From Streptomyces sp. Je 1-369 (GTDB lineage: Bacteria > Actinomycetota > Actinomycetes > Streptomycetales > Streptomycetaceae), in the NCBI RefSeq assembly GCF_026810505.1, contig NZ_CP101750.1, positions 7,428,515-7,492,514 of the forward strand: a stretch of 64,000 nucleotides of DNA, in the 5' to 3' direction. Made by a program: the position numbers and the translations under genes. The notes under the pieces are model-generated. The model searched no databases. It had not been told where the DNA came from and saw only the letters and a program-made list of their open reading frames with translations. This document shows positions 6,047-17,349 of this stretch, one piece after another (the first letter of the stretch is position 1; the number at the start of each line of letters is the position of its first letter).

Positions 6047-6055
6047 GTTCAGCCC
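6040..6055. terminator. Short bidirectional hairpin spanning two convergent stop codons
   Basis: GGGCTGAGTTCAGCCC is a 7-bp perfect inverted repeat with a two-base centre. One arm holds the lactonase stop and the other holds the stop of the opposing lipoprotein gene. It may act as a terminator for both strands; there is no T-tract, as is common in Streptomyces. Confidence 0.4.
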
Positions 6056-7056
6056 CTGAGTTCCCTGAGGTACTTGCCGAACTTCTCCAGACCGTCGACG
6101 TTGCGCGGCCCGCTGATGCCTTCGTTGTAGTCGAGGACGAAGAAGTTGTTCTTCTTGACGGCGGGCAGCTCCTTCGTGTGCGGGGACTTCTTCAGAAACT
6201 CGATCTTCTTCTTCGCTGGCTGGTCGCCGTAGTCGAAGATGATGACGACCTCGGGCTCGGCCTTGGCCACGGCCTCCCAGTTGACCTGCGTCCAGCGCTC
6301 GTCGAGGCCGTCGAAGACGTTCCTGCCGCCCGCGCTCTTGATGATGTCGTTCGGCGGCACCTGACTGCCGGCCGTGAAGGGCTGGTCGGTGCCGGAGTCG
6401 TAGAGGAAGACGGGGACGCGCTTGCCGTCCTCGGCCTTGGGGGCCTTCGCCTCCACGGCGGCGACGCGCTTCTTCAGGTCGCCGACGACCTGGTCCGCCT
6501 TCTGCTCGACCCGGAAGATCTTCCCGAGTCGCTCCAGGTCGCTGTAGAGCGCCTTGAACGGGGTGACCTTCTGCGGGTGGCCGGGGTAGTTGAAACAGCT
6601 CTCCGTGTGCATGAAGCTCTGAATGCCGAGCTTGTCCAGGATCTTCGGGGTGATGCCGCGCTGGTCGCTGAAGCCGGAGTTCCAGCCCGCGACGACGAAG
6701 TCCGACTTCGCCTCCACGACCAGCTCCTTGTTGAGCAGATCGTCGCTGAGCATCTTGACCTTGGCGTACTCCGACGCCCAGGGAGACTCGCTGACCGGCG
6801 GGTTGGCGGGCGGCATCACATAGCCGTGGACGTGCTCGGTCAGGCCGAGGCTGAACAGTTTGTCGGCGCTGCCGCCCTCGTACGCGACCGCACGCTGGGG
6901 GACCTTGTAGGGGACGGGTTCGCCGCAGCGCTTGACGACCGTCTTCTTCTCGGCTCCCTCGGCGTCGTCGGACGAGTCGAGGTCGGCGCCGCAGCCGCTC
7001 AGGGCCAGTGCGGCCGTGAGCGCGGAGGCCAGGGCGAGGGATCTGGTGTGACGCAT
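6049..7056 (-). CDS. Siderophore/metallophore-type ABC substrate-binding lipoprotein (FepB/BtuF fold)
   Basis: A 335-residue receptor lipoprotein for a metal chelate. Starting at MRHTRSLALA gives a clean signal peptide with the lipobox LSGC (Cys22). The mature part has the class III binding-protein layout, with PQRAVAYEGGSADKLFSLGL early and VVIIFDYGD and GISGPRNVDGLEKFGKYL late. A longer frame to 7107 adds three copies of the pentapeptide ATHHL-type repeat encoded by 15-bp DNA repeats and is less likely to be translated. It is the last gene of the six-gene leftward operon beginning at 12209. Its ligand is inferred to be a Zur-regulated metallophore-metal complex; Fe-siderophore or corrinoid binding remain alternatives. 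Confidence 0.88.
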   Translation of the reverse strand: MRHTRSLALASALTAALALSGCGADLDSSDDAEGAEKKTVVKRCGEPVPYKVPQRAVAYEGGSADKLFSLGLTEHVHGYVMPPANPPVSESPWASEYAKVKMLSDDLLNKELVVEAKSDFVVAGWNSGFSDQRGITPKILDKLGIQSFMHTESCFNYPGHPQKVTPFKALYSDLERLGKIFRVEQKADQVVGDLKKRVAAVEAKAPKAEDGKRVPVFLYDSGTDQPFTAGSQVPPNDIIKSAGGRNVFDGLDERWTQVNWEAVAKAEPEVVIIFDYGDQPAKKKIEFLKKSPHTKELPAVKKNNFFVLDYNEGISGPRNVDGLEKFGKYLRELRG

Positions 7057-7078
7057 GAGGTGGGGATGCCTTTCAAGG

Positions 7079-7123
7079 TGATGCGTTGCCAAGTGATGCG
7101 TTGCCAAGTGATGCGTTGCAAAG
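7079..7123. repeat. Three tandem 15-bp repeats in the leader of the metallophore lipoprotein gene
   Basis: TGATGCGTTGCCAAG occurs at 7079 and 7094 exactly, and with one change at 7109. The array fills most of the 69-base gap between the ATPase and lipoprotein genes. Because 15 is a multiple of three, it keeps an open frame upstream of the lipoprotein start. It could affect mRNA processing or the relative expression of the receptor gene. Confidence 0.7.
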
Positions 7124-7125
7124 GT

Positions 7126-7899
7126 TCAAAGGGAGGGGTGGAGCGCGTACAGGAGCTGGGGGTCGCCCGTCAGCGGATGCGGGACGACCGTGGCCTTCAC
7201 CCCGAACACATCGGCCATCAGGGACTCGGTGAGCACCTCCGTGGGACTCCCCGACGTCACGAGACGTCCCTGGGAGAGCACCCCGATCCGGTCGCAGGCG
7301 GCCGCCGCGAGGTTGAGGTCGTGCAGCACGACGAGGACGGTGGGCCCGGCGCAGCGCAGGTGCGAGAGGACCTCGATCTGATGGCGTACGTCGAGGTGGT
7401 TGGTCGGCTCGTCGAGGACCAGGACGTGCGGTTCCTGGACGAGGGCGCGGGCGAGCAGTACGCGCTGGCGCTCACCGCCCGACAGGGTGAGGACGCCGCG
7501 CTTGGCGAGGTGGGCGACGTCGAGCCGGTCCATCGCCCGGGCGCACAGCTCCCGTTCGCGGGCGGTGAGCGCCTGGTTGCCGCGCTGGTGCGGGGCGCGA
7601 CCGAGGGCGACGACCTCCTCGACCGTGAAGTCCAGGTCGACGGCGCCGTCCTGCGTCATGGCGGCGACGAGCTGCGCGCCGCGCCGCATCGTGAGCCGGG
7701 ACATGTCGTCGCCGCCCACGAGGACGGCGCCGGAGGACGGGCGCAGCGCCCGGTACACGCAGCGCAGCGCCGTCGACTTGCCGCTGCCGTTGGGGCCGAC
7801 CAGGCCGACGACCTCGCCGTCCCCCACGTCGAGGGAGAGGTCGTGGACGAGGCGCTTGCCGTCGATGGCCACGGAGAGCCCGTCGATCCGCAGGTCCAT
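7126..7899 (-). CDS. Metallophore ABC transporter ATP-binding protein (FecE/FepC type)
   Basis: A 257-residue ATPase that would power uptake of the metal chelate. Walker A GPNGSGKST (residues 35-43), the ABC signature LSGGERQRV (about 137), Walker B VLVLDEPTNHLD (about 157-168) and the switch histidine in VLHDLN are all intact. Length and motifs fit the FecE/FepC/BtuD group. Its start is one base after the permease stop, so the two are coupled, and it is followed by the lipoprotein gene. Confidence 0.93.
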   Translation of the reverse strand: MDLRIDGLSVAIDGKRLVHDLSLDVGDGEVVGLVGPNGSGKSTALRCVYRALRPSSGAVLVGGDDMSRLTMRRGAQLVAAMTQDGAVDLDFTVEEVVALGRAPHQRGNQALTARERELCARAMDRLDVAHLAKRGVLTLSGGERQRVLLARALVQEPHVLVLDEPTNHLDVRHQIEVLSHLRCAGPTVLVVLHDLNLAAAACDRIGVLSQGRLVTSGSPTEVLTESLMADVFGVKATVVPHPLTGDPQLLYALHPSL

Positions 7900-7900
7900 C

Positions 7901-9022
7901 TCAACGACCCCCGAACGTATAGCCCTTGCGGCGCATCAGGCCGATGAACACCGGCACCCCGACGAGCGCCGTGATGACACCGAGCGGCAGCTCGCGCGGA
8001 GCGACCACGGTGCGCGACAGCAGATCCACCCAGACCATGAAGACCGCCCCGGCCAGCGGGGCGACGGCGAGCACGCGGGCGTGGGTGGCACCGACCACCA
8101 TCCGCACCAGGTGCGGCATGACGAGTCCCACGAAGCTGATGGCGCCGCTGACGGCCACCATCACGCCGGTGATCAGGGAGACGACGACGAGCAGCGACTT
8201 GCGGTGCCGGTCGGGGCTGACGCCCAGGCTGGACGCCGTCTCGTCGCCCAGCGCGAGGACGTCGAGGGCCCTGCTGCAGCGGTACAGCACGGCGAGGCCG
8301 AGAAGGACGGCCGCCGCGACGACGGGCAGCGCGCCCCAGCTCGCGGCGCCGAAGCTGCCCATCGTCCAGTACAGGACCATCGACGTCGCCTCGCTGTCCG
8401 GCGCGAAGTAGATGATCACGCTCATCACGGCCTGGAACCCGAGGGACATCGCCACACCCGTCAGGACGAGTCGCAGCGGCGAGAGCGCGCCGCCGCTGGA
8501 GGAGGCGACGTACACGAGGAACGAGGCCACGAGCGCGCCGACGAACGCCCCCGCGGACACGGCGTACACGCCGAGCGCGGCGAGTCCCCCGGTGACCGTG
8601 ACGCCGACCGCGCCGACCGACGCGCCCGAGGAGACCCCGAGCACGAAGGGGTCGGCGAGCGCGTTGCGCACCATGGCCTGGATGGCCACGCCGACGGCGC
8701 TCAGACCGGCGCCGACCAGGGCGGCGAGGAGCACGCGGGGGGTGCGGATCTGCCAGATGATCTGGTACGTCGTCGTCTCGTCGGCGTCGACGCGGCCGCC
8801 GGTGAGGGCGGCCCAGATGAGGCGGGCGGTGTCGGCGGGCGTGACGACGGCGGCGCCCAGGCCGATGGCCACGACGACGGAGGCCAGCAGGAGGACGAAC
8901 AGGACGAGGCAGGTGAGGACGAGGACCTTGGGGGAGGCGAGTCGCTCTCGCAGGCCGGTGGGGGAGGGCGTGTCGGTGCGGCCCTCGGTGGGGCTGCCGA
9001 GGTCGGCAGTGCGGGTGCTCAC
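7901..9022 (-). CDS. Metallophore ABC transporter permease (FecCD family)
   Basis: A 373-residue integral membrane protein of the FecCD/BtuC family with about ten hydrophobic segments. Diagnostic segments are visible: RTPRVLLAALVGAGLSAVGVAIQAMVRNALADP, the coupling-helix region around LGDETASSLGV and the conserved FVGLVMPHLVR near the C-terminus. A single permease gene implies a homodimer, as in BtuC. The GTG start overlaps the stop of the MFS gene (GTGA at 9019-9022). It is part of the operon beginning at 12209. Confidence 0.92.
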   Translation of the reverse strand: MSTRTADLGSPTEGRTDTPSPTGLRERLASPKVLVLTCLVLFVLLLASVVVAIGLGAAVVTPADTARLIWAALTGGRVDADETTTYQIIWQIRTPRVLLAALVGAGLSAVGVAIQAMVRNALADPFVLGVSSGASVGAVGVTVTGGLAALGVYAVSAGAFVGALVASFLVYVASSSGGALSPLRLVLTGVAMSLGFQAVMSVIIYFAPDSEATSMVLYWTMGSFGAASWGALPVVAAAVLLGLAVLYRCSRALDVLALGDETASSLGVSPDRHRKSLLVVVSLITGVMVAVSGAISFVGLVMPHLVRMVVGATHARVLAVAPLAGAVFMVWVDLLSRTVVAPRELPLGVITALVGVPVFIGLMRRKGYTFGGR

Positions 9023-10347
9023 GGGGTGCTCTCCTTGTCCTCGGCCGCCCGGTTCTTGCCCTCGTCCACCGGGCCCTGGCCCTCGTCCGCCCGGTTGGCC
9101 CGCACGACGAGCACCGCCGCCCCCAGCGCCGCCACGACCAGCGCGCCGAAGACCGCGGCCGTGCCGGGGTAGCCCGCGAGGCCGAGGCCCGCGCCGCCGA
9201 GCGCCGCGCCGGCGAACACGCCGAGGCTCTGGCCCGCCGCGTTGAGGCTCAGCGCCGAGCCGCGCAGCGTCGTGCCGCACCGCCGCACGATGAGGCTGAC
9301 GACGCACGCCGCGACGACGGCGTGGCTCGCCGCGTGCAGCGCGGTCATGGCGAGGGCGAGCGGCAGCCAGTGCGTGAAGTAGAAGCCCACGACCGAGACG
9401 AGCGCGGCGACCAGCCCGGCGGCGAGCACGCGTGCCGTGCCGACGCGCGGTGCGGCGGAGTTGGTGAGCCGCCCGGTGAGGAGGTTGCTGACGAAGAACG
9501 CCGCGCCGCTCAGCGTCCACACGAACGCGAAGAGCCCGGCGTCGAGGTCGAACCGCTCCTCGTAGAAGGCCGCGAGGTACGACAGGTAGCCCATGAACAC
9601 CGCGGTGCGCAGGAAGCCGATCAGCAGCAGCGGCACCACACCGCGCACGGCGGCCAGCGCCCTGAACGAGGCGAGGTAGCCGAGGCGCGGCCCGTCCGGG
9701 ACGGCTCCGTCGCCCTGGTCCGCGTGCCGCCCGCGCCGTGCCACGAAGACAGCGGCGAGCAGCAGCGCCACCACGGTCACCCCGAGCAGGTCGCCCTGCC
9801 AGCCCCAGAACAGCGCGGGCAGCGCGATGACCGGGGCGGCGAGCATGGCGGTCATGGAGGTGGTGGCCGTGACGAGGGTCGCGGCGCGCCCGGCGGCCTT
9901 GCCGGTGCCGAAGCGGTCGGCGGCCGCGGCGGTGAGCGCCGGGTTCAGTACGGCCGTACTGGCGCCGACGAGCAGGCAGAACACGGCGAGCAGGAGGAAG
10001 TCCCCACTGGCGCCGAGCGCGGCGGAGGCACCGAGTGCGACGAGCGCTCCCGCGGCCGCCCACTCCCTGGGCACCCGGTCGATGACCGGGGCGAGCGCGG
10101 TGCCGACCAGCAGGGCGGCGAGCCCGCCGAGCCCGCGCAGGCCGCCCATCGCCGCGACGCTGCTGCCCGCCTCGTCGGCGATGGGCACGAGGTACGTGCT
10201 GAAGACGGTGAACGGCAGGAGGCCGACCGCCGAGGCGAGCAGGACGGGCCAGAGCGTGCGCGCCATGCGCAGATCGCCCGGCAGCGCGTCCTCCTCGCTC
10301 GGGTCGGCGCTGCCCTTCGTACCGTCCTTGGTGGCGTCGACGCTCAC
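9019..10347 (-). CDS. MFS transporter, candidate metallophore exporter
   Basis: A 442-residue major facilitator protein with about twelve hydrophobic segments. A loop after helix 6 contains RRGRHADQGDGAVPDGPRL, typical of the central cytoplasmic loop. The GTG start overlaps the stop of the DUF364 gene and its own stop overlaps the permease start, so it is locked into the same translation unit as the importer. MFS proteins encoded with metallophore biosynthesis genes are usually exporters of the free ligand, and I infer that here. Export of excess metal or precursor is an alternative. The last 25 residues are charged and probably disordered. Confidence 0.88.
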   Translation of the reverse strand: MSVDATKDGTKGSADPSEEDALPGDLRMARTLWPVLLASAVGLLPFTVFSTYLVPIADEAGSSVAAMGGLRGLGGLAALLVGTALAPVIDRVPREWAAAGALVALGASAALGASGDFLLLAVFCLLVGASTAVLNPALTAAAADRFGTGKAAGRAATLVTATTSMTAMLAAPVIALPALFWGWQGDLLGVTVVALLLAAVFVARRGRHADQGDGAVPDGPRLGYLASFRALAAVRGVVPLLLIGFLRTAVFMGYLSYLAAFYEERFDLDAGLFAFVWTLSGAAFFVSNLLTGRLTNSAAPRVGTARVLAAGLVAALVSVVGFYFTHWLPLALAMTALHAASHAVVAACVVSLIVRRCGTTLRGSALSLNAAGQSLGVFAGAALGGAGLGLAGYPGTAAVFGALVVAALGAAVLVVRANRADEGQGPVDEGKNRAAEDKESTP

Positions 10348-11183
10348 GCTGCCGCTCCGTCCGACGCGAGGGCGGCGCGGTAGCGGTACATGGGCGTGGC
10401 GTCCGCGCTGAACTGGGAGAACGTGAACGGCTCCGCGTTCAGGGCGGTGACGCCCGCGCCGAGGAAGGCGCGGGCGACGGCGCTGCCGCTCTGCGCGTAG
10501 ACGACGAGCGGCACGCCGTGTTCGACGCAGTGCCGCAGGATCAGGTCGAACGTGCCGTTGCTGAGCGTCATGCCGGTGGCGACCACGGTGTCGGCCTGCG
10601 CGAGCACCTCGGTCATGTCGTCGGAGACGGGCTCGCCCCACGCCGTGGTGCGCAGGTTCAGGTCGCAGGGCAGGCAGATGCCGCCCCGCTCGCGTATCGC
10701 CGCGACGAGCGGGTTGACCACGCCGATCAGGGCGACGCGCGCGCCGGGTTCGATGTCGAGGAGCCCGGCGACGGCGGCGTCGCGGGCCTCGGCGCGCTCC
10801 TCGGGCGTGCCGGTCGGGAGCATGACGCGCTCGGCGTCGTCGGCGTCGCGGTGCGGGCGTACCCGCGCGAAGTAGGCGTCGAGCGCGGCGGTCCGCACGG
10901 GCGCCGCTTCGTCGCGCAGCAGCTTGTCCAGGGAGTGGCCCGAGGCGTTCTCGCAGAAGCCCGGGGCGAGTTCGCCCGCCTCGAAGGAGCAGGCGCCGAA
11001 GGAGTCGCCGACGCGGAGCAGCAGGTAGTGGTTGTGGTACGTGACGTCGCCGCCGGCGAGCCGCGTGGTGTTGTAGAGCCAGAACGCGCTGGTGACGGTG
11101 AGGTCGGCCGGGTCGGGGCCGTGGGCGCCCGCGAGGACGGCGTCGGTGAGCTCGGCGACGGTCTGGGGTGGGGTGTGCGGCAT
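10344..11183 (-). CDS. DUF364 (putative heavy-metal chelation) protein
   Basis: A 279-residue protein whose C-terminal half matches the DUF364 Rossmann-like domain: GARVALIGVVNPLV, the strongly conserved-type ADTVVATGMTLSNGTFDLIL and VYAQSGSAVARAFLGAGV. The N-terminal half fits the DUF4213-type cap that accompanies it. Structural work on the founding member of this family proposed a metal-chelation or small-molecule role, but no reaction is established to my knowledge. Here the gene sits between a PLP ligase-like enzyme and an MFS exporter behind a Zur box, which fits a step in metallophore assembly. The start ATG at 11183 follows AGGGAA by about 6 bases. Confidence 0.8.
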   Translation of the reverse strand: MPHTPPQTVAELTDAVLAGAHGPDPADLTVTSAFWLYNTTRLAGGDVTYHNHYLLLRVGDSFGACSFEAGELAPGFCENASGHSLDKLLRDEAAPVRTAALDAYFARVRPHRDADDAERVMLPTGTPEERAEARDAAVAGLLDIEPGARVALIGVVNPLVAAIRERGGICLPCDLNLRTTAWGEPVSDDMTEVLAQADTVVATGMTLSNGTFDLILRHCVEHGVPLVVYAQSGSAVARAFLGAGVTALNAEPFTFSQFSADATPMYRYRAALASDGAAA

Positions 11184-11213
11184 GTGTGTTCCCTAGGGGG
11201 CTTCAGTGGGGGT

Positions 11214-12209
11214 TCAGGAGGGGGTGGCGGCGGGCCAGGCCGTCGTGGACCAGGGGTGTTTGAGCTGGTCCAGGGAGGTGATCTCGTGCGGCTTCAACGT
11301 GTCGATGTCCAGGGCCTGTTCGTGCTGTGCGTAGGCGCTCTCGACGTAGCGGTGGCCGGTGTCGGCGGCGATGAAGACGTACGTGCGCGTGTCGTCCCTG
11401 CGCCGCTCCCACAGGGCGGTGAGGTAGGCGGCGCCCGCCGAGAGCCCGGCGAAGATGCCGCTGGTGCGCAGCAGGGAGACGGCGCCCGACACGGCGCTCT
11501 CGAAGTTCACCCAGTGCACGCGGTCGTACAGCTCGTGCCGTACGTTGCGGAACTCGATGGCGCTGCCGATCCCCGCGATGATCATGTCGGGGTCCGCGAC
11601 GTGCTCCGAGCCGAAGGTGACGCTGCCGAAGGGCTGCACGCCGACGAGTGACACGTCGCGCCCGGCCTCGCGCAGATAGGTGGCGAGGGCGCCGGTGGAG
11701 GCGCCCGAGCCCACGCCGCCGACCAGCGCGAGCGGCCCGGTCGGCAGGTCCTTGTCCAGCTCCGCGGCGACGTCCTGGTAGCCGAGGTAGTGGATGTCGT
11801 CGTGGTACTGCCGCATCCAGTGGTACGAGGGGTTCTCCGCCAGGATCTCGGCGATGCGCCGCACCCTCAACTCCTGGTCCAGGCGCAGGTTCTGGGAGGG
11901 CGCGACCTGCTCCAGCGTGGCGCCGAGTATCTCCAGCTGCACGCGGGTCGAGCGGTCGACGGTGGTGGAGCCGACGATGTGGCACTTCATGCCGTACCGG
12001 TGGCAGGCGAGCGCGAGGGCCTGGGCGTAGATGCCGCTGGAGCTGTCGATGAGGGTGTCGCCGGGGCGGACGGCGCCGGAGTCGAGCAGGTGCCGGACGG
12101 CGCCGAGGGCCGAGTAGATCTTCATGGTCTCGAAGCGGAGACAGGCCAGATCCGGTGCGAGGGATATGAGATCGGGTTTCTTCACCGCTTCGGCGATGTG
12201 TGCGTGCAT
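11214..12209 (-). CDS. Cysteine-synthase-fold PLP enzyme (SbnA-like), candidate metallophore biosynthesis
   Basis: A 331-residue fold-type II PLP enzyme. Family landmarks are visible: a lysine in FETMKIYSALG at the Schiff-base position, the phosphate-binding loop GSGASTG and GLSAGAA near the C-terminus. The substrate-carboxylate loop, TSGNTG in cysteine synthases, reads SSSGIY here, so the substrate probably differs from O-acetylserine. SbnA of the staphyloferrin B pathway is a known relative that uses O-phosphoserine for beta-replacement. The neighbouring divergent kinase could supply such a phosphorylated amino acid. ATG at 12209 lies behind a G-rich ribosome binding site; the Zur box is 97 bases upstream. 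First gene of the leftward operon. Confidence 0.85.
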   Translation of the reverse strand: MHAHIAEAVKKPDLISLAPDLACLRFETMKIYSALGAVRHLLDSGAVRPGDTLIDSSSGIYAQALALACHRYGMKCHIVGSTTVDRSTRVQLEILGATLEQVAPSQNLRLDQELRVRRIAEILAENPSYHWMRQYHDDIHYLGYQDVAAELDKDLPTGPLALVGGVGSGASTGALATYLREAGRDVSLVGVQPFGSVTFGSEHVADPDMIIAGIGSAIEFRNVRHELYDRVHWVNFESAVSGAVSLLRTSGIFAGLSAGAAYLTALWERRRDDTRTYVFIAADTGHRYVESAYAQHEQALDIDTLKPHEITSLDQLKHPWSTTAWPAATPS

Positions 12210-12305
12210 GACAGAAATCCCCCCGTAGGGACGTAGGGACGTAGGGCGAGAAGGCCGGGAGGGGTGACGGAGCGGACTCCGGAACGCCGAGAGCATCACA
12301 CTAGA

Positions 12306-12320
12306 TGAAAATGATTGTCA
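12306..12320. promoter_or_regulatory. Zur box between the divergent metallophore operons
   Basis: TGAAAATGATTGTCA is a 7-1-7 palindrome with one mismatch. It agrees with the Streptomyces Zur consensus TGAAAATGATTTTCA at 14 of 15 positions, as I recall that consensus. It lies midway between the PLP-enzyme start (12209) and the kinase start (12395), so one repressor dimer pair could silence both operons when zinc is plentiful. It is the only such site I could find in the window. Confidence 0.82.
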
Positions 12321-12394
12321 AGACCGGGTAAGGTCGGCACACTGGTCCGCGCGGAGCGCCGTGCCGTGTGCGCCGCGATGTCGAGAGGAGTTGC

Positions 12395-13408
12395 GTGAAG
12401 CTGATCCAGGAGGCCGGAACCCGGCCTCGCCCGCCGCACCGAGGTACGCCCGCGACCGGGGTCGGCACCGCCTTCGGTACCTTCGGCGAGCTGCTCCAGG
12501 GGGTGCTGCCGGAAGAGGGCGGCGACTTCCTCGTGACGCTCCCCGTCGCCCGCTGGACGATGGCCACGTTCCGGCAGGGGTCCGCGTCGGGCGAGCTCGA
12601 AGTCCGGCCCGCGCACAAGACGAAGGCGCTGCGACTCGCGCGCATGATCGCCGAACCGGCGCACGCGAGGCGGCCCGGGCGCCCGCCCGGCGGCGTGCTC
12701 ACCGTCAGCAGCGTCATCCCGGAGGGCAAGGGCCTCGCCAGCTCCTCCGCCGACCTCGTCGCCACCGCGCGGGCGGTCGGCCGGGCCCTCGGCGTCCCGA
12801 TGCCGCCCGCCAGGATCGAACGGCTGCTGGCCCGCATCGAACCCACCGACGGCGTGCTCTACCCCGCGATCGTCGCCTACCACCACCGCAGCGTCCGGCT
12901 CCGCGCCGTCCTCGGCTCACTGCCCGCCATGGCGGTCGTCGGCATCGATGAGGGCGGCTCGGTGGACACGGTGGACTTCAACCGCATCCCCAAACCGTTC
13001 ACGACCGCCGACCGGCACGCCTACGCCGATCTGCTCGAACGGCTCACCGTCGCGGTGCGCGGCCACGACCTGGCGGAGGTGGGGCGGATCGCCACACGCA
13101 GCGCCCTGATGAACCAGACCCTGCGCCACAAGGCGTCGTTGGAGCCCATGCGCGAGATCTGCCGAGAGGTCGGCGGCCTCGGCGTCGCGGTCGGGCACAG
13201 CGGTACGACGTCGGGGATCCTGCTCGACGCCACGGACCCCGCGTACACGCGCCGCGTGACGGCGGCGGCGCAGGCGTGCGAGGAGCTGACGAGCAGGGGG
13301 GCGGGCGGGGGATCGGGCGGCGTGTCGGTCTACCGGACGCTGAGCTTCGGCTCCGTACCCACGCGGCCTTCTCTCCCCGCGCTGTCCGCCCTCGGGGAGG
13401 TCCCGTGA
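12395..13408 (+). CDS. GHMP-superfamily kinase, PduX-like (L-threonine or related amino-acid kinase)
   Basis: A 337-residue kinase with the GHMP ATP-binding motif PEGKGLASSSADL (residues 109-121) and an N-terminal GTFGELLQG that corresponds to the GTCGELVQG-type motif of PduX threonine kinases. A C-terminal VGHSGTTSGILLD matches the third GHMP motif. PduX makes L-threonine O-3-phosphate in cobalamin assembly, but no other cobalamin gene is nearby. Divergence from an SbnA-like enzyme across a Zur box suggests that the phosphorylated amino acid feeds metallophore synthesis. GTG at 12395 has GAGGAG 5 bases upstream. The stop overlaps the start of the Fur-family gene. Confidence 0.8.
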   Translation: MKLIQEAGTRPRPPHRGTPATGVGTAFGTFGELLQGVLPEEGGDFLVTLPVARWTMATFRQGSASGELEVRPAHKTKALRLARMIAEPAHARRPGRPPGGVLTVSSVIPEGKGLASSSADLVATARAVGRALGVPMPPARIERLLARIEPTDGVLYPAIVAYHHRSVRLRAVLGSLPAMAVVGIDEGGSVDTVDFNRIPKPFTTADRHAYADLLERLTVAVRGHDLAEVGRIATRSALMNQTLRHKASLEPMREICREVGGLGVAVGHSGTTSGILLDATDPAYTRRVTAAAQACEELTSRGAGGGSGGVSVYRTLSFGSVPTRPSLPALSALGEVP

Positions 13409-13893
13409 CCGGCGTGGCGGAGGGGATGCGCAGGACCCGCCGGCGTGCCGCCGTCCTCGAAACCCTCGGCAGCCGCGCCGAGTTCGTCTCCGCGCAGGAG
13501 CTGCACGCCCTGCTCGCGGTCTCCGGCCGGGCGGTCGGCCTCACCACCGTCTACCGCGCGCTGCGCGAACTGGACCGTGCCGGTCTCGTCGACGTCGTAC
13601 GCGACGAGACCGGCGAACGGCTCTACCTGCGGCGCCCCACCGACGAACATCGTCACTACCTCATCTGCCGCGACTGCGGCCGCAGCCGTCCGGTGGACGC
13701 GGGCGCCGTCGAGGTGTGGGCGGACGGCCTGGCGGAGGCGACGGGCTTCGCCGAACTCGAGCACACGCTCGAACTCAGCTTGTTCTTTATGGTCAGCGGG
13801 GTCTGCGGCTCGTGCCGCTCCGCTCAACTGTGCACGCCGAGGCCGGACAGGCCCGGCGCGAGCTCGGGGCGCAGTACGAGGTCCTCGTCGTAG
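13405..13893 (+). CDS. zur: Fur-family metalloregulator, Zur-like
   Basis: A 162-residue Fur-superfamily repressor with a winged helix (residues about 10-75; SGRAVGLTTVYRALREL) and metal sites: His82, His84 and the two CxxC pairs Cys88/Cys91 and Cys134/Cys137 expected to hold structural zinc. The pattern HYLICRDCG followed by VEVWADGLAEATGF resembles actinobacterial Zur more than Fur or Nur. It is translationally coupled to the kinase gene (GTGA at 13405-13408) and lies downstream of the Zur box, so it may be autoregulated. It is probably a local paralogue. The last 70 bases overlap the opposing oxidoreductase gene, giving an unusual 25-residue basic/serine tail after the final cysteine pair. 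Confidence 0.78.
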   Translation: MTGVAEGMRRTRRRAAVLETLGSRAEFVSAQELHALLAVSGRAVGLTTVYRALRELDRAGLVDVVRDETGERLYLRRPTDEHRHYLICRDCGRSRPVDAGAVEVWADGLAEATGFAELEHTLELSLFFMVSGVCGSCRSAQLCTPRPDRPGASSGRSTRSSS

Positions 13894-14600
13894 GCGCCGC
13901 CGTTCTCCTCGTGGAAGGGCAGCGGGTCGGTGCCGGGGAGGGCGCGCAGGCGCTGGCGCAGCCGTCCGGCGCTGTGCGCGTACCCGGCGTCCGTGAGCCG
14001 GTCGGCGCCGTACACGACGAAGGGTGGGAGCGCGGCCATCCCCGTGTACCAGAACGTGCCGTGCAGCAGCGGGAACAGCACCTGGTCCAGCTGGCCGTGG
14101 ATCCCGCGCGGCCCGAAGCCGGACTCGCGGGCGCCGACCGACGTGACGACGAGGGCGCGCTTGCCCGCGAGGCCCCCGTCGCCGTACCGCAGGGTCCGGC
14201 CTTCGGGCCCCTTGACGCCGAAGCCGAAGCCCTGGACGAGCACGCGGTCGAACCAGCCCTTGAGGATCGCGGGCGGCCCGAACCACCAGAGCGGGAACTG
14301 GAAGACGAGCGTGTCCGCCCAGTCGATCTTCTCCTGCTCGCGGCGCACGTCCTCGCTCAACTTCCGCTCCCTGTACGCGCGTTCCTGCTCGGAACCCACG
14401 AAGAGCCGCCGGTCGCGCGGCGGCCCCCCGAAGTCGTCGGTGAAGTCGTCGGCGTCCACCACGGCCTTCCACCCCATGCCGTACAGATCGGACGTGCGGT
14501 GCTCGTGCCCGAGCGACTCCAGCGTGCGCAGTCCCTCCGTCATGAGGGAGCCGCCCAGCGAGCGCCGGTCGGGGTGTGCGAATACCCAGAGAATCTTCAT
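13824..14600 (-). CDS. NAD(P)H oxidoreductase, flavodoxin-like fold (quinone reductase type)
   Basis: A 258-residue flavoprotein of the NQO1/KefF-like group, expected to reduce quinones or similar acceptors. The N-terminus KILWVFAHPDRRSLGGSL is the typical first strand and FMN/FAD phosphate loop; VFQFPLWWFGPPAILKGWFDRVL is the conserved flavin-binding region, followed by VVTSVGA. MKIL at 14600 is chosen since it starts the first strand, with AGGAT upstream. It converges on and overlaps the Zur-like gene by 70 bases. A 9-bp inverted repeat (14638-14672) lies just upstream and may be its operator. Confidence 0.85.
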   Translation of the reverse strand: MKILWVFAHPDRRSLGGSLMTEGLRTLESLGHEHRTSDLYGMGWKAVVDADDFTDDFGGPPRDRRLFVGSEQERAYRERKLSEDVRREQEKIDWADTLVFQFPLWWFGPPAILKGWFDRVLVQGFGFGVKGPEGRTLRYGDGGLAGKRALVVTSVGARESGFGPRGIHGQLDQVLFPLLHGTFWYTGMAALPPFVVYGADRLTDAGYAHSAGRLRQRLRALPGTDPLPFHEENGGAYDEDLVLRPELAPGLSGLGVHS

Positions 14601-14637
14601 GCGTCGATCCTGTGCCGCGGTTCCCGGCCGCATCGAG

Positions 14638-14779: not shown

Positions 14780-15028
14780 ATGGCTGAGGACAGACGGCGG
14801 AGATTCGTGCCGCCGCCCGCACTCTGCGGCTTTCTGTTGCTGTTGGTGCTGGTCTTCGCCGCGTCGTACGCCGTGGGCAGGGCGGCGGGGCCGGTCGCGC
14901 CGGGCATGCACGACTCGAAGACGGGATCGGGGTCCGACACGCGGCCCGGCGGCGACGGCAGCAGTGGTGACGGCAGCAGTGGCGACGGCACCGGCGACAT
15001 GGGCGGCATGCACGGCGGAGGCCACTGA
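14780..15028 (+). CDS. Small membrane protein with Gly/Ser linker and Met/His-rich tail, copper operon
   Basis: An 82-residue protein with one strong membrane helix (about residues 14-38, ALCGFLLLLVLVFAASYAVG). It is followed by a Gly/Ser/Asp linker with GDGSSGDGSSGDG-type repeats and a C-terminal DMGGMHGGGH that could bind copper. The ATG at 14780 follows GGGAGCGGT. The stop overlaps the ATG of the copper ATPase gene (TGATG), so it is the first gene of a coupled three-gene operon. I know no named family; a copper donor or sensor role next to the pump is inferred from composition and context. Confidence 0.65.
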   Translation: MAEDRRRRFVPPPALCGFLLLLVLVFAASYAVGRAAGPVAPGMHDSKTGSGSDTRPGGDGSSGDGSSGDGTGDMGGMHGGGH

Positions 15029-17349
15029 TGGGCGTCGAAGCGGCGGACGCCGTCGTCACCACCGATCTGGCCGTCGGCGGCATGACCTGCGCGGCCTGCG
15101 TGAAACGGGTCGAGAAGCGCCTCGCCGGACTCGACGGGGTCACCGCGACGGTCAACCTCGCGACCGGCCGCGCCCGCGTGAGCCACCCGCCGACCGTCAC
15201 CCCCGCCGACCTCGTCACCACCGTCGAGCAGGCCGGATACACGGCGGAACTGCCGGAACCCCCACGGCCGCAGGAACGTGATCCACAACCGCACCCGCGG
15301 GACCAACGAGCACAGCGAGAACAGCAACAGCAGCACCAGCAGCGGCAGCAGCTCCTGATCACCGCCCTGCTCTCCCTCCCCGTGCTCGTCCTCTCCATGG
15401 CCCCCGCCCTCCAGTTCCGCAACTGGCAGTGGCTGTGCTTCGCGCTCGCCGCGCCCGTCGCCACCTGGGGCGCGTGGCCGTTCCACCTGCGCGCGCTGCG
15501 CGGGCTGCGGCACGCGGCGGCGACCATGGACACGCTGGTCTCGCTGGGTGTCGCCGCGTCCTTCGGCTGGTCGGCGTACGCGCTCTTCCTCGGCGGTGCG
15601 GGCGACCCCGGCATGACGATGCCGTTCACCCTGCTGCCCTCCGCCGACGACGGCGTCGCGCACGTCTATCTGGAGGCGGCCGTCGGTGTCCCGCTGTTCG
15701 TCCTCGCCGGGCGGTTCCTGGAGGCGCGGGCCCGGCACGGCACCGGGCGGGCGCTGCGGTCCCTCGCGGGGCTCGCGGCCAAGGACGTCGCCGTACGGGA
15801 GGAGTCCGGCGCCGAACGCGTCGTACCCATCGGGCAGTTGGACGTGGGCCAGATCTTCGTCGTACGGCCCGGTGAGCGGGTCGCGACCGACGGAGACGTG
15901 GTCGAGGGCAGCTCCGCCGTGGACCTGTCGCTGGTCACCGGGGAGAGCGAACCCGTCGAGGTCGGGCCCGGGTCCGCAGTGACCGGCGGCGCGGTCAACG
16001 CGGGCGGGCTGCTCCTCGTCCGTGCCACGGCTGTCGGCGCCGACACCCAACTGGCCAGGATCACCCGCATGGTGACCGACGCCCAGGCGGGCAAGGCGAA
16101 CGCGCAGCGGCTCGCGGACGAGGTCGCGGGCGTGTTCGTGCCGGTCGTGCTCTCGCTCGCCGCCACGGTGCTCGGCTTCTGGCTCGGCGCCGGAGCCGAC
16201 CCGCAGGCCGCCGTCACCGCGTGCGTGGCCGTGCTCGTCGTCGCCTGCCCGTGCGCTCTGGGCCTGGCCACGCCCACCGCCCTGATGGCCGCGACCGGCC
16301 GGGGCGCCCAGCTCGGTGTCCTGGTCACCGGGCCGCAGGCCCTCGAAGCGCTGAAGCACGTCGACACCGTCGTCCTCGACAAGACCGGCACCCTGACCTC
16401 CGGGCACATGAGCGTCACCGCGTGCACGGCGGCGCCCGACGGCATCGGCAAGGAGGCCGCGCTGCGGCTCGCCGGAGCCGTGGAGCAGGGCTCGGAACAC
16501 CCGCTGGGCCGCGCGATCACCGCGTACGCGAGGAAGGCCGCCCCACAGGAACAGCTGCCGCCGGTCCGAGAGTTCGCCGCCCAGGCGGGACGGGGCGTCC
16601 GGGGCGTGGTCGACGGCCACGTCGTCGAAGTCCGGGCCCCCGGCGACGAGTTGGAGGGGCCGCTCGCCCGCGCACTGGCGGAGGCCGAGGGCGCCGCGCA
16701 CACCCCCGTCCTGATCCTGGTGGACGGCGGGCCCGAGGCGCTCGTCGCCGTCGGAGACCTGGTGCGGCCCGGCAGCTACCGTGCCGTGGACCAACTGCGG
16801 CGCCTCGGAGTACGCCCCGTCCTGGCCACCGGCGACCGCGAGGCCACCGCCCGCGCCGTCGCCGAAGACCTCGGCATCGACGAAGTGCACGCCCGCTGCA
16901 CACCCGCGGGAAAGGCGGCCCTCGTGCGGGAGTTGAGGGAAGGCGGCCGCCGCGTCGCGGTCATCGGTGACGGCGTGAACGACGCCGCGGCGCTCGCGGG
17001 CGCCGACCTCGGCATCGCCATGGGCGGCGGCACCGACGTGGCGATCGGCGCCGCCGACGTGACGCTCGTCCGCGGCGACATCGAGGCCGTCGCGGACGCG
17101 GTCCGCCTCGCCCGCCGCACCCTGCGCACCATCCGCGTCAACCTCCTGTGGGCCTTCGGCTACAACGCCGTCACGGTGCCGCTCGCCGCGGTGGGCCTGC
17201 TGAACCCCATGGTCGCCGCCGCGGCGATGTCGGCGAGTTCCCTGCTGGTGGTCGGCAACAGCCTGCGCCTGCGCACCTGGCGCCCGGCCCGCGGCCCGGC
17301 GCCGCGCCCGCACCGCGACCGTCGCCAGAACCGTGGAGGCCACCGATGA
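15028..17349 (+). CDS. copA: Copper-translocating P1B-type ATPase (CopA-like)
   Basis: A 773-residue heavy-metal pump expected to export Cu(I). Domains in order: an N-terminal HMA metal-binding domain with GMTCAAC (Cys21, Cys24), a Gln/Arg-rich linker (about residues 95-115), membrane helices, the actuator TGE in VTGESEP, the transmembrane CPC motif (407-409), the phosphorylation site DKTGT (Asp451), the EHPLG histidine-proline motif and the hinge GDGVND (about 647). CPC and the HMA sequence favour copper or silver over zinc. It is overlapped at both ends by neighbouring genes, forming a copper-handling operon. No CsoR gene or clear CsoR site is visible nearby. Confidence 0.93.
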   Translation: MGVEAADAVVTTDLAVGGMTCAACVKRVEKRLAGLDGVTATVNLATGRARVSHPPTVTPADLVTTVEQAGYTAELPEPPRPQERDPQPHPRDQRAQREQQQQHQQRQQLLITALLSLPVLVLSMAPALQFRNWQWLCFALAAPVATWGAWPFHLRALRGLRHAAATMDTLVSLGVAASFGWSAYALFLGGAGDPGMTMPFTLLPSADDGVAHVYLEAAVGVPLFVLAGRFLEARARHGTGRALRSLAGLAAKDVAVREESGAERVVPIGQLDVGQIFVVRPGERVATDGDVVEGSSAVDLSLVTGESEPVEVGPGSAVTGGAVNAGGLLLVRATAVGADTQLARITRMVTDAQAGKANAQRLADEVAGVFVPVVLSLAATVLGFWLGAGADPQAAVTACVAVLVVACPCALGLATPTALMAATGRGAQLGVLVTGPQALEALKHVDTVVLDKTGTLTSGHMSVTACTAAPDGIGKEAALRLAGAVEQGSEHPLGRAITAYARKAAPQEQLPPVREFAAQAGRGVRGVVDGHVVEVRAPGDELEGPLARALAEAEGAAHTPVLILVDGGPEALVAVGDLVRPGSYRAVDQLRRLGVRPVLATGDREATARAVAEDLGIDEVHARCTPAGKAALVRELREGGRRVAVIGDGVNDAAALAGADLGIAMGGGTDVAIGAADVTLVRGDIEAVADAVRLARRTLRTIRVNLLWAFGYNAVTVPLAAVGLLNPMVAAAAMSASSLLVVGNSLRLRTWRPARGPAPRPHRDRRQNRGGHR

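What the first reader, a model, noticed from the sequence alone, without database searches (positions are those of the whole stretch)
6049..13893. A compact Zur-controlled metallophore system without NRPS, NIS or nicotianamine-type synthase
Seen: eight genes in two divergent, tightly coupled operons around a Zur box encode every step a metallophore needs: an amino-acid kinase, a PLP beta-replacement-type enzyme, a DUF364 metal-chelation protein, an MFS exporter, a full FecBCD-type importer and a Zur-like repressor. Established: Zur represses zincophore genes in actinomycetes (coelibactin in Streptomyces; [S,S]-EDDS in Amycolatopsis japonicum), and SbnA-type enzymes make diaminopropionate from O-phosphoserine. 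Inferred: this locus makes a small aminocarboxylate-type zincophore by a route using a PduX-like kinase and a DUF364 enzyme. I know of no described pathway with this gene set.
Basis: partly seen in the sequence, partly recalled or inferred. Interest (0 to 1): 0.88.

Follow-up and report, generated by a model that had tools for sequence, protein, structure and literature searches.

The report
Zur-controlled zinc-scavenger gene cluster
This compact soil-bacterium gene cluster very probably makes, exports and re-imports a small zinc-grabbing molecule with an enzyme set that I found in no paper, and the same set recurs in many related bacteria.

Summary
In detail: eight genes in two divergent, overlapping operons around a near-perfect Zur box, the best such site in the 8.8-Mb genome. 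Comparative data make a zinc-metallophore role likely: DUF364, an SbnA-like PLP enzyme, an MFS exporter and a chelate importer recur together in Streptomyces, Nocardiopsis, Amycolatopsis and others. Of 192 distinct PLP loci, 112 of 135 with DUF364 have a Zur box, against 2 of 57 without; this link is not independent of descent. PLP residue 169 is Ser where the GHMP kinase is present and Thr where it is absent (152 of 152; held-out 36 of 37). This suggests that the kinase makes the PLP enzyme's own bulkier phospho-substrate, probably O-phospho-L-threonine. Some DUF364-less relatives carry an argininosuccinate-lyase-type enzyme (15 of 57, against 0 of 135), so I infer that the PLP product is an N-substituted aspartate, kept here as an aminopolycarboxylate chelator. 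Compound, zinc response and DUF364 chemistry are not shown; the EDDS/EDHA genes could not be compared. I file it as a new variant of a known kind.

The parts
6049..7056 (-). FecB/BtuF-type substrate-binding lipoprotein of the importer
   Evidence: PF01497, 87.7 bits; closest curated model is a putative F420-0 transporter SBP, below its cut-off
7126..7899 (-). ABC importer ATPase (FecE/BtuD type)
   Evidence: PF00005
7901..9022 (-). FecCD-type permease
   Evidence: PF01032, 295.4 bits
9019..10347 (-). MFS transporter, proposed exporter of the metallophore
   Evidence: PF07690; MFS in 76 of 80 named relatives
10344..11183 (-). DUF364 protein, core of the system; role inferred (biosynthesis or metal handling)
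   Evidence: PF04016, 44.3 bits against 23; AlphaFold2 model pLDDT 90.4; top five Foldseek rows are the solved DUF364 proteins 3l5o and 3npg
11214..12212 (-). CysK/SbnA-fold PLP beta-replacement enzyme; Lys31 catalytic, Arg116/Tyr136 = SbnA Arg132/Tyr152, Ser169 = SbnA Thr186
   Evidence: PF00291; SbnA is the top PDB relative by profile; invariants; residue 169
12306..12320 (.). Zur box between the two divergent operons
12395..13408 (+). GHMP kinase, proposed to make the phospho-amino-acid substrate of the PLP enzyme
   Evidence: PF00288 and PF08544; link with PLP residue 169
13405..13893 (+). Zur paralogue that keeps the structural Cys4 and D-site ligands and has Arg and Tyr at M-site Cys79 and His87
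   Evidence: PF01475; closest PDB chain is S. coelicolor Zur; ligand comparison

Best explanation
The locus is a zinc-metallophore (zincophore) system repressed by Zur. When zinc is short, both operons are derepressed. The GHMP kinase phosphorylates the side-chain hydroxyl of an amino acid, most likely L-threonine. The PLP enzyme then replaces the phosphate, through an aminoacrylate-type intermediate, with the amino group of a second amino acid, most likely L-aspartate. This gives an N-(2-amino-2-carboxy-1-methylethyl)-aspartate type aminopolycarboxylate. DUF364 completes the chelator, or handles its metal complex inside the cell. The MFS protein exports it and the FecBCD-type ABC transporter re-imports the zinc complex. 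Shown by sequence: gene set, coupling, Zur box, conservation, catalytic residues, kinase/residue-169 link. Inferred: zinc as the metal (about 0.85), phospho-amino acid as substrate (about 0.75), threonine rather than serine (about 0.6), aspartate as nucleophile (about 0.5), any role of DUF364.
For: (1) The Zur box is the best site in the genome. (2) In 192 distinct PLP loci, a Zur box (up to 3 mismatches) lies within 7.5 kb in 112 of 135 with DUF364 and 2 of 57 without; reversed motif 0 of 192. In the later-fetched, non-duplicate loci it is 9 of 9 and 0 of 28 (whole stretch scanned). (3) Of 80 named DUF364 loci, 78 have the PLP enzyme, 76 an MFS protein, 71 the kinase, 69 FecB and 69 FecCD. 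(4) Iron boxes (up to 4 mismatches) in 4 of the same 80 loci, against Zur boxes (up to 3) in 65. (5) An Opp/Nik-type importer takes the place of FecBCD in related Zur-box loci while PLP enzyme plus DUF364 stay. (6) Lys31, Arg116 and Tyr136 invariant in 32 of 32 PLP sequences and matched with the Lys, Arg132 and Tyr152 of SbnA. (7) Ser169 with kinase in 111 and Thr169 without in 41 of 152 loci (104 and 39 of 143 distinct ones), no exception; 7 of 7 independent pairs agree, sign test p 0.016; held-out 36 of 37. (8) Argininosuccinate-lyase-type partner in 15 of 57 DUF364-less loci and 0 of 135 with DUF364 (family).
Against: No compound, expression or binding data. The DUF364-Zur link is not independent of descent: DUF364 changes only 3 times on the PLP tree and the pair test gives median p 0.5. 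23 of 135 DUF364 loci have no box in reach. The nucleophile is inferred from lyases in other clusters. Residue 169 could track something other than a beta-methyl group, and one held-out locus (L315) breaks the rule. In one search one of 40 loci (L311) reads Arg at the Lys31 column; its match begins at residue 104, so that reading is unsure. 28 of 135 distinct DUF364 loci show no kinase (some may be cut contigs), so the kinase is not needed in every variant. The importer's nearest curated models are a putative F420-0 transporter, not a zincophore one. 'Heavy-metal chelation' for DUF364 is itself only a proposal (PMC2954201, abstract and passages).
Confidence: 0.68

Rival explanations
1. It is an [S,S]-EDDS or EDHA-like aminopolycarboxylate pathway in the strict sense, that is, orthologues of the aes genes with a different neighbourhood.
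For: EDDS is a Zur-controlled aminopolycarboxylate of actinomycetes (recalled from Spohn 2016; not read). EDHA clusters occur in Streptomyces (PMC8914351 and PMC10702961, passages). The PLP enzyme is SbnA-like.
Against: No SbnB-type dehydrogenase above cut-off in the genome (best 99.1 against 326.9 bits); whether aes clusters need one is recalled only. EDHA is described as iron-responsive (PMC10702961 passage), whereas these loci carry Zur boxes and few iron boxes.
Confidence: 0.15
2. A Zur-controlled metallophore for another metal (cobalt, nickel, copper), or a broad-spectrum one, in the way of staphylopine.
For: The aminopolycarboxylate aspergillomarasmine A binds Zn, Ni and Co (PMC11091072, start of abstract in the listing). 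The local Zur paralogue lacks M-site ligands, so it may sense something other than zinc.
Against: The box matches the S. coelicolor Zur motif (PMC5472717 passage), and the next best site in this genome is at a ZnuA-like gene.
Confidence: 0.2
3. The PLP enzyme and kinase make only a diamino acid building block (2,3-diaminobutyrate or 2,3-diaminopropionate) and DUF364 cleaves or joins it; the aspartate adduct is not the final chelator.
For: Relatives beside NRPS-like genes (by eye) carry a lyase (L303, L309), as expected for diaminobutyrate made from Thr. DabABC is reported to make it from L-Thr (PMC4052310 passage).
Against: No ligase, NRPS or lyase among the eight proteins and no lyase in any of 135 distinct DUF364 loci, so a free diamino acid would have no assembly step unless DUF364 provides it.
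Confidence: 0.25
4. Residue 169 tracks a change of leaving group or nucleophile, and the kinase makes O-phosphoserine; no threonine is involved.
For: A serine kinase supplying SbnA exists in S. aureus (SbnI, recalled).
Against: The solved relatives printed (seven alignments) all have Thr at this site, among them SbnA (O-phosphoserine) and CysK (O-acetylserine; substrates recalled), so a phosphate leaving group alone does not call for Ser.
Confidence: 0.3

Closest known systems
[S,S]-EDDS (Amycolatopsis japonicum, aes genes) and EDHA aminopolycarboxylate metallophores
   Same: Actinomycete, no NRPS; EDDS is Zur-controlled (recalled); SbnA-like chemistry likely
   Different: GHMP kinase, DUF364 and MFS/FecBCD set here; EDHA described as iron-responsive. 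Direct gene comparison was not possible
SbnA/SbnB L-2,3-diaminopropionate synthesis (staphyloferrin B)
   Same: SbnA is the top PDB relative of the PLP profile; Arg132/Tyr152 equivalents kept
   Different: Below the SbnA cut-off; Gly at the SbnA Ser185 site; no SbnB above cut-off in the genome
Aspergillomarasmine / toxin A (fungal aminopolycarboxylate)
   Same: Proposed product type; toxin A is the precursor of aspergillomarasmine (PMC10792612, abstract and passages), which sequesters Zn (PMC8319579, title and start of abstract)
   Different: Fungal enzyme, no kinase, no DUF364 (recalled); here an extra methyl is predicted
Opine zincophores (staphylopine, pseudopaline)
   Same: Zinc-responsive synthesis, export and ABC import
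   Different: No nicotianamine-type synthase or opine dehydrogenase domain among the eight proteins
Coelibactin (Streptomyces coelicolor)
   Same: Zur-repressed Streptomyces zincophore cluster (PMC5472717 passage)
   Different: Non-ribosomal peptide (PMC3430247, start of abstract); no NRPS here
DabABC 2,3-diaminobutyrate synthesis from L-Thr
   Same: CysK-like PLP enzyme acting on Thr (PMC4052310 passage); kinase + PLP + lyase loci belong to the same PLP family
   Different: Here no lyase and no NRPS; DUF364 instead. That review likens DabB to the deaminase VioK, not to a lyase

Membership tests
Aminopolycarboxylate zincophore (EDDS/EDHA type) | Zur control | tested here: met
   Zur box, (sequence only; binding not tested)
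Aminopolycarboxylate zincophore (EDDS/EDHA type) | aesA-D orthologues | not testable with these tools
   aes sequences not identified; Spohn papers not read; a search of 19 genomes of one Amycolatopsis-type genus for the SbnA family was not followed further
Aminopolycarboxylate zincophore (EDDS/EDHA type) | the compound itself | not testable with these tools
   needs LC-MS
SbnA/SbnB diaminopropionate pathway | SbnA equivalog score (TIGR03945, 349.95 bits) | tested here: not met
   133.7 bits
SbnA/SbnB diaminopropionate pathway | SbnB equivalog in the genome (TIGR03944, 326.9 bits) | tested here: not met
   best 99.1 bits
SbnA/SbnB diaminopropionate pathway | O-phosphoserine residues Arg132, Tyr152, Ser185 | tested here: inconclusive
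   first two kept (Arg116, Tyr136), third is Gly168. The role of these residues is recalled; a PDB title names the Y152F/S185G variant
DUF364 (PF04016) | Pfam gathering score | tested here: met
   44.3 against 23 bits
DUF364 (PF04016) | enolase-N-like plus Rossmann-like two-domain fold | tested here: met
   model pLDDT 90.4; 3l5o E 1e-9 over 248 columns, TM 0.56/0.63
Zur (Fur family) | FUR domain and ScZur as nearest solved relative | tested here: met
Zur (Fur family) | M-site zinc ligands Cys79 and His87 | tested here: not met
   Arg and Tyr at the aligned columns in 7 of 7 cluster-encoded homologues aligned
Zur (Fur family) | structural Cys4 site and D-site ligands | tested here: met
   invariants, numbered
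PduX L-threonine kinase | GHMP kinase domains | tested here: met
PduX L-threonine kinase | phosphorylates L-threonine | not testable with these tools
   no curated PduX hit; best solved relatives are mevalonate kinases, then other GHMP kinases such as homoserine kinase
Opine, NRPS or NIS metallophore | nicotianamine-type synthase/opine dehydrogenase, NRPS or IucA/IucC domain | tested here: not met
   none among the eight proteins
Diaminobutyrate synthesis with lyase | argininosuccinate-lyase-type partner | tested here: not met
   0 of 135 distinct DUF364 loci

The most novel reading that the evidence does not exclude
DUF364 plus an SbnA-like PLP enzyme define a large, undescribed class of Zur-controlled metallophores in actinomycetes, with interchangeable kinase, methyltransferase, oxygenase, ATP-grasp and importer parts. 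One residue of the PLP loop (Ser or Thr 169) tells whether a dedicated kinase supplies O-phospho-L-threonine, giving a C-methylated aspergillomarasmine-like aminopolycarboxylate, or the enzyme draws O-phospho-L-serine from primary metabolism. DUF364 would then be a new metallophore enzyme.
Probability: 0.4. Interest if true: 0.88.

Novelty: new variant of a known kind. Interest (0 to 1): 0.77.

Why it matters
It would give DUF364, a family still without a shown function in the papers I saw, a testable role. It also offers a one-residue rule that may predict substrates in SbnA-like biosynthesis, and a source of Zn chelators of the aspergillomarasmine type (a metallo-beta-lactamase inhibitor, PMC8319579, title and start of abstract) from cultured Streptomyces.

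Tried and rejected
Calls that failed on coordinates, names or formats: 4, 5, 40, 50, 76, 111 (stop codon in a given frame; redone, with proteins dropped, as 10, 11, 41, 55, 79, 115), 30 (search term; asked differently in 45), 95 (library absent; left), 108 (friulimicin paper not held; a review already open was read instead, 109), 114 (a locus given where a genome handle was needed; 116 and 117 followed). (19 genomes, SbnA family) was meant to reach the EDDS genes; it did not identify them and was dropped. The iron-box idea was tested and such boxes found rare. A phylogeny-aware test of the DUF364-Zur link was not significant, so the Fisher values are descriptive. My first ORF caller often took the wrong frame; its clusters served to choose proteins for Pfam and to name ATP-grasp and methyltransferase genes in loci such as L061. 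I recalled DabB as a lyase; the review likens it to the deaminase VioK, so the aspartate idea rests on my own lyase counts. Kinase substrate from PDB relatives: undecided. No model coordinates were at hand, so distances from residue 169 to the substrate could not be measured.

Dropped rows: A4 uses the window plus 35 of the 80 named DUF364 loci (L223 and L229 dropped for a stop; the rest not chosen). A5 uses the window plus 38 of 73 readable PLP proteins. The tree has 100 rows, that has 152. In one search, 3 of 40 loci were left out as duplicates, 13 duplicates.
Full report
OBSERVATION. The window lies in an 8.82-Mb one-contig genome. Its genus is taken as Streptomyces, because same-genus contigs share lengths with named Streptomyces records. 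The eight genes sit as described. On the minus strand run PLP enzyme, DUF364, MFS, FecCD permease, ATPase and substrate-binding protein; on the plus strand run GHMP kinase and a FUR-family regulator. The Zur box TGAAAATGATTGTCA at 12306-12320 lies about 93 bases from the PLP start and 74 from the kinase start. Shuffled windows gave no match at up to 3 mismatches. In the whole genome it is the only site with at most one mismatch; 21 strand-matches occur at up to 3, against 8 for the reversed motif. The next best site lies at the start of a ZnuA-like gene (named by eye) close to the main zur. The box fits the experimental S. coelicolor motif tGaNNatSatNNtCa (PMC5472717, passages).

CONSERVED SET. 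The PLP enzyme has relatives (E up to 1e-40) in 102 of 295 same-genus genomes. I fetched 66 PLP-centred regions (6 annotated plasmid stretches; 60 genome stretches). tblastn with the eight proteins shows several architectures. Type I, as in the window: FecBCD, MFS, DUF364, PLP, then kinase with or without FUR. Type II: MFS, FecBCD, DUF364, kinase, PLP, often with a small methyltransferase. Type III: an Opp/Nik-type importer, methyltransferase (Pfam score below its cut-off), PLP, a PhyH-type oxygenase, DUF364, MFS, no kinase (families of L072). A fourth, more distant type (nine loci fetched) has ATP-grasp, DUF364 (41-44% identical) and PLP (30-34%), an Opp/Nik-type importer in 8 of 9 and a Zur-like box in 7 of 9. 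Other PLP relatives have no DUF364 and sit, for example in L093, with an ATP-grasp ligase, an MFS protein and a methyltransferase; the genome's own second copy at C1:8299161-8300138 has no DUF364, kinase or box either. Class-wide, the DUF364 subfamily (distant type included) is in 30 of 394 genomes and 8 of 137 genera and the PLP enzyme in 30 of 394. Of those 80, 78 have the PLP enzyme, 76 MFS, 71 kinase, 69 FecB, 69 FecCD, 45 the methyltransferase and 65 a Zur box at up to 3 mismatches (94 sites against 0 for the reversed motif). Some misses are contig ends.

ZINC CONTROL GOES WITH DUF364. In the first set of 67 loci (window included), a box lay within 7.5 kb of the PLP gene in 30 of 37 with DUF364 and 2 of 30 without. 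Over 192 distinct loci the numbers are 112 of 135 and 2 of 57, with 0 of 192 for the reversed motif. The two DUF364-less loci with a box are L065, a window-type cluster cut by a contig end, and L109. In the later-fetched non-duplicate loci it is 9 of 9 and 0 of 28. This is strong as description but not as an independent test: DUF364 changes only three times on the PLP tree and the paired test gives median p 0.5. Iron boxes are rare (4 of 80 named loci at up to 4 mismatches, 1 of 86 other loci; none in the window at up to 3).

THE ENZYMES. SbnA, the enzyme of staphyloferrin B synthesis, is the nearest solved relative by profile (E 1e-51), then CmnB. Lys31, Arg116 and Tyr136 are invariant in 32 of 32 diverse PLP sequences and line up with the catalytic Lys, Arg132 and Tyr152 of SbnA; Ser185 of SbnA is Gly168 here. 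In one search one of 40 further loci (L311, whose match starts at residue 104) reads Arg at the Lys31 column. PDB titles name Y152F/S185G as a made variant of SbnA; that these residues serve O-phosphoserine is recalled. The protein is not an SbnA equivalog (133.7 against 349.95 bits) and the genome has no SbnB above cut-off. The kinase has GHMP domains, but no model tells its substrate. DUF364 gave a confident model (pLDDT 90.4) whose top matches are the two solved DUF364 proteins. The family paper proposed an active site at the domain interface and a link to metal chelation (PMC2954201, abstract and passages). In 36 sequences many polar residues are invariant, among them Arg41, Arg57, Cys65, Cys173, Asp174, Trp182 and Asp213, which suggests an enzyme. 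The PLP model is weaker (pLDDT 84.1).

A ONE-RESIDUE LINK BETWEEN KINASE AND PLP ENZYME. Comparing DUF364 loci with kinase (47) and without (18), one position separates them fully: residue 169, Ser with kinase, Thr without. Extended to 152 PLP loci of all types (these 65 among them), 111 have Ser and a kinase and 41 have Thr and none, with no exception (104 and 39 of the 143 distinct ones). Both traits change 8 times on a tree built without that column, and 7 of 7 independent pairs agree (sign test p 0.016). In 40 loci fetched afterwards, 3 were duplicates and 36 of 37 obeyed; the exception (L315) has Ser and no kinase in reach, in a genome whose other locus (L314) has one. The residue sits in the loop that is V-S185-T186-T187 in SbnA; the solved relatives printed have Thr there. 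My reading: Thr to Ser frees the space of one methyl group, so kinase-linked enzymes take O-phospho-L-threonine, which primary metabolism does not supply, while Thr169 enzymes take O-phospho-L-serine, which it does. This is inference.

THE NUCLEOPHILE. Rhizobial plasmid relatives, and relatives beside NRPS-like genes (by eye), place kinase and PLP enzyme with an argininosuccinate-lyase-type enzyme. Argininosuccinate lyase releases fumarate from N-substituted aspartate (textbook). Such lyases occur in 15 of 57 DUF364-less loci and 0 of 135 with DUF364. L-2,3-diaminobutyrate from L-Thr by three enzymes DabABC is reported (PMC4052310, passage), which fits kinase, PLP enzyme and lyase, though that review likens DabB to a deaminase. 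If the shared PLP step joins phospho-Thr (or phospho-Ser) to aspartate, the DUF364 clusters, lacking the lyase, keep the adduct: an aminopolycarboxylate of the toxin A kind, the precursor of aspergillomarasmine (PMC10792612, abstract and passages). DUF364 and the optional methyltransferase would then finish it.

THE LOCAL ZUR. The regulator at 13405-13893 is closest to S. coelicolor Zur among solved chains. Mutants C79S/H87A (M-site) and H84A/E105A (D-site) of that protein are named in PMC11077047 (passages); the remaining ligands are recalled. The seven cluster-encoded homologues aligned (window and six fetched) keep the Cys4 residues and His84, His86, Glu105 and His122, and have Arg and Tyr at Cys79 and His87. 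The six fetched ones are in same-genus loci of types I and III, and 5 of these 6 loci show a Zur box. It may be a second, differently tuned zinc switch; untested.

KNOWN OR NEW. Zur-controlled zincophores of actinomycetes are a known kind (coelibactin; EDDS, recalled), and antiSMASH 7 has an aminopolycarboxylic-acid class (PMC10320115, passage). The EDHA cluster of S. scabiei spans 11 kb (PMC8914351, passage), and EDHA is described as iron-responsive (PMC10702961, passage). I could not compare genes with EDDS or EDHA. Ten paper searches listed no pathway with kinase, PLP enzyme and DUF364; of the seven papers that hold 'DUF364', none is on such a pathway by title and start of abstract, and passages of two were read. 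I file it as a new variant of a known kind.

Noticed in passing
window 13405-13893; L063, L064, L065, L072, L074, L076: Cluster-encoded Zur paralogues have Arg and Tyr at the M-site zinc ligands Cys79 and His87 but keep the structural and D-site ones (7 of 7 aligned).
   Followed up: partly
G000:C1:8299161-8300138 (L061): The genome has a second, 60% identical PLP enzyme with FecBCD, ATP-grasp and methyltransferase genes but no Zur box, kinase or DUF364.
   Followed up: partly
L059, L060 (Mesorhizobium and Rhizobium plasmids): GHMP kinase, PLP enzyme and an ATP-grasp/argininosuccinate-lyase protein (fused, Pfam shown for L059) sit side by side; product unknown.
   Followed up: no
L302-L309, L118-L120: Loci with kinase, PLP enzyme, ATP-grasp and argininosuccinate-lyase-type enzyme, some beside NRPS-like genes by eye (L303, L309); perhaps diaminobutyrate-containing peptides.
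   Followed up: partly
L179-L187: Distant DUF364-PLP class with an ATP-grasp ligase, an Opp/Nik importer in 8 of 9 and a CGATAATCATTTTCA-like box in 7 of 9.
   Followed up: partly
window 13824-14633 -, 15028-17349 +: Next to the cluster lie a flavodoxin-fold NAD(P)H oxidoreductase-like gene, overlapping the regulator's 3' end, and a copper-type P-type ATPase-like gene (by eye).
   Followed up: no
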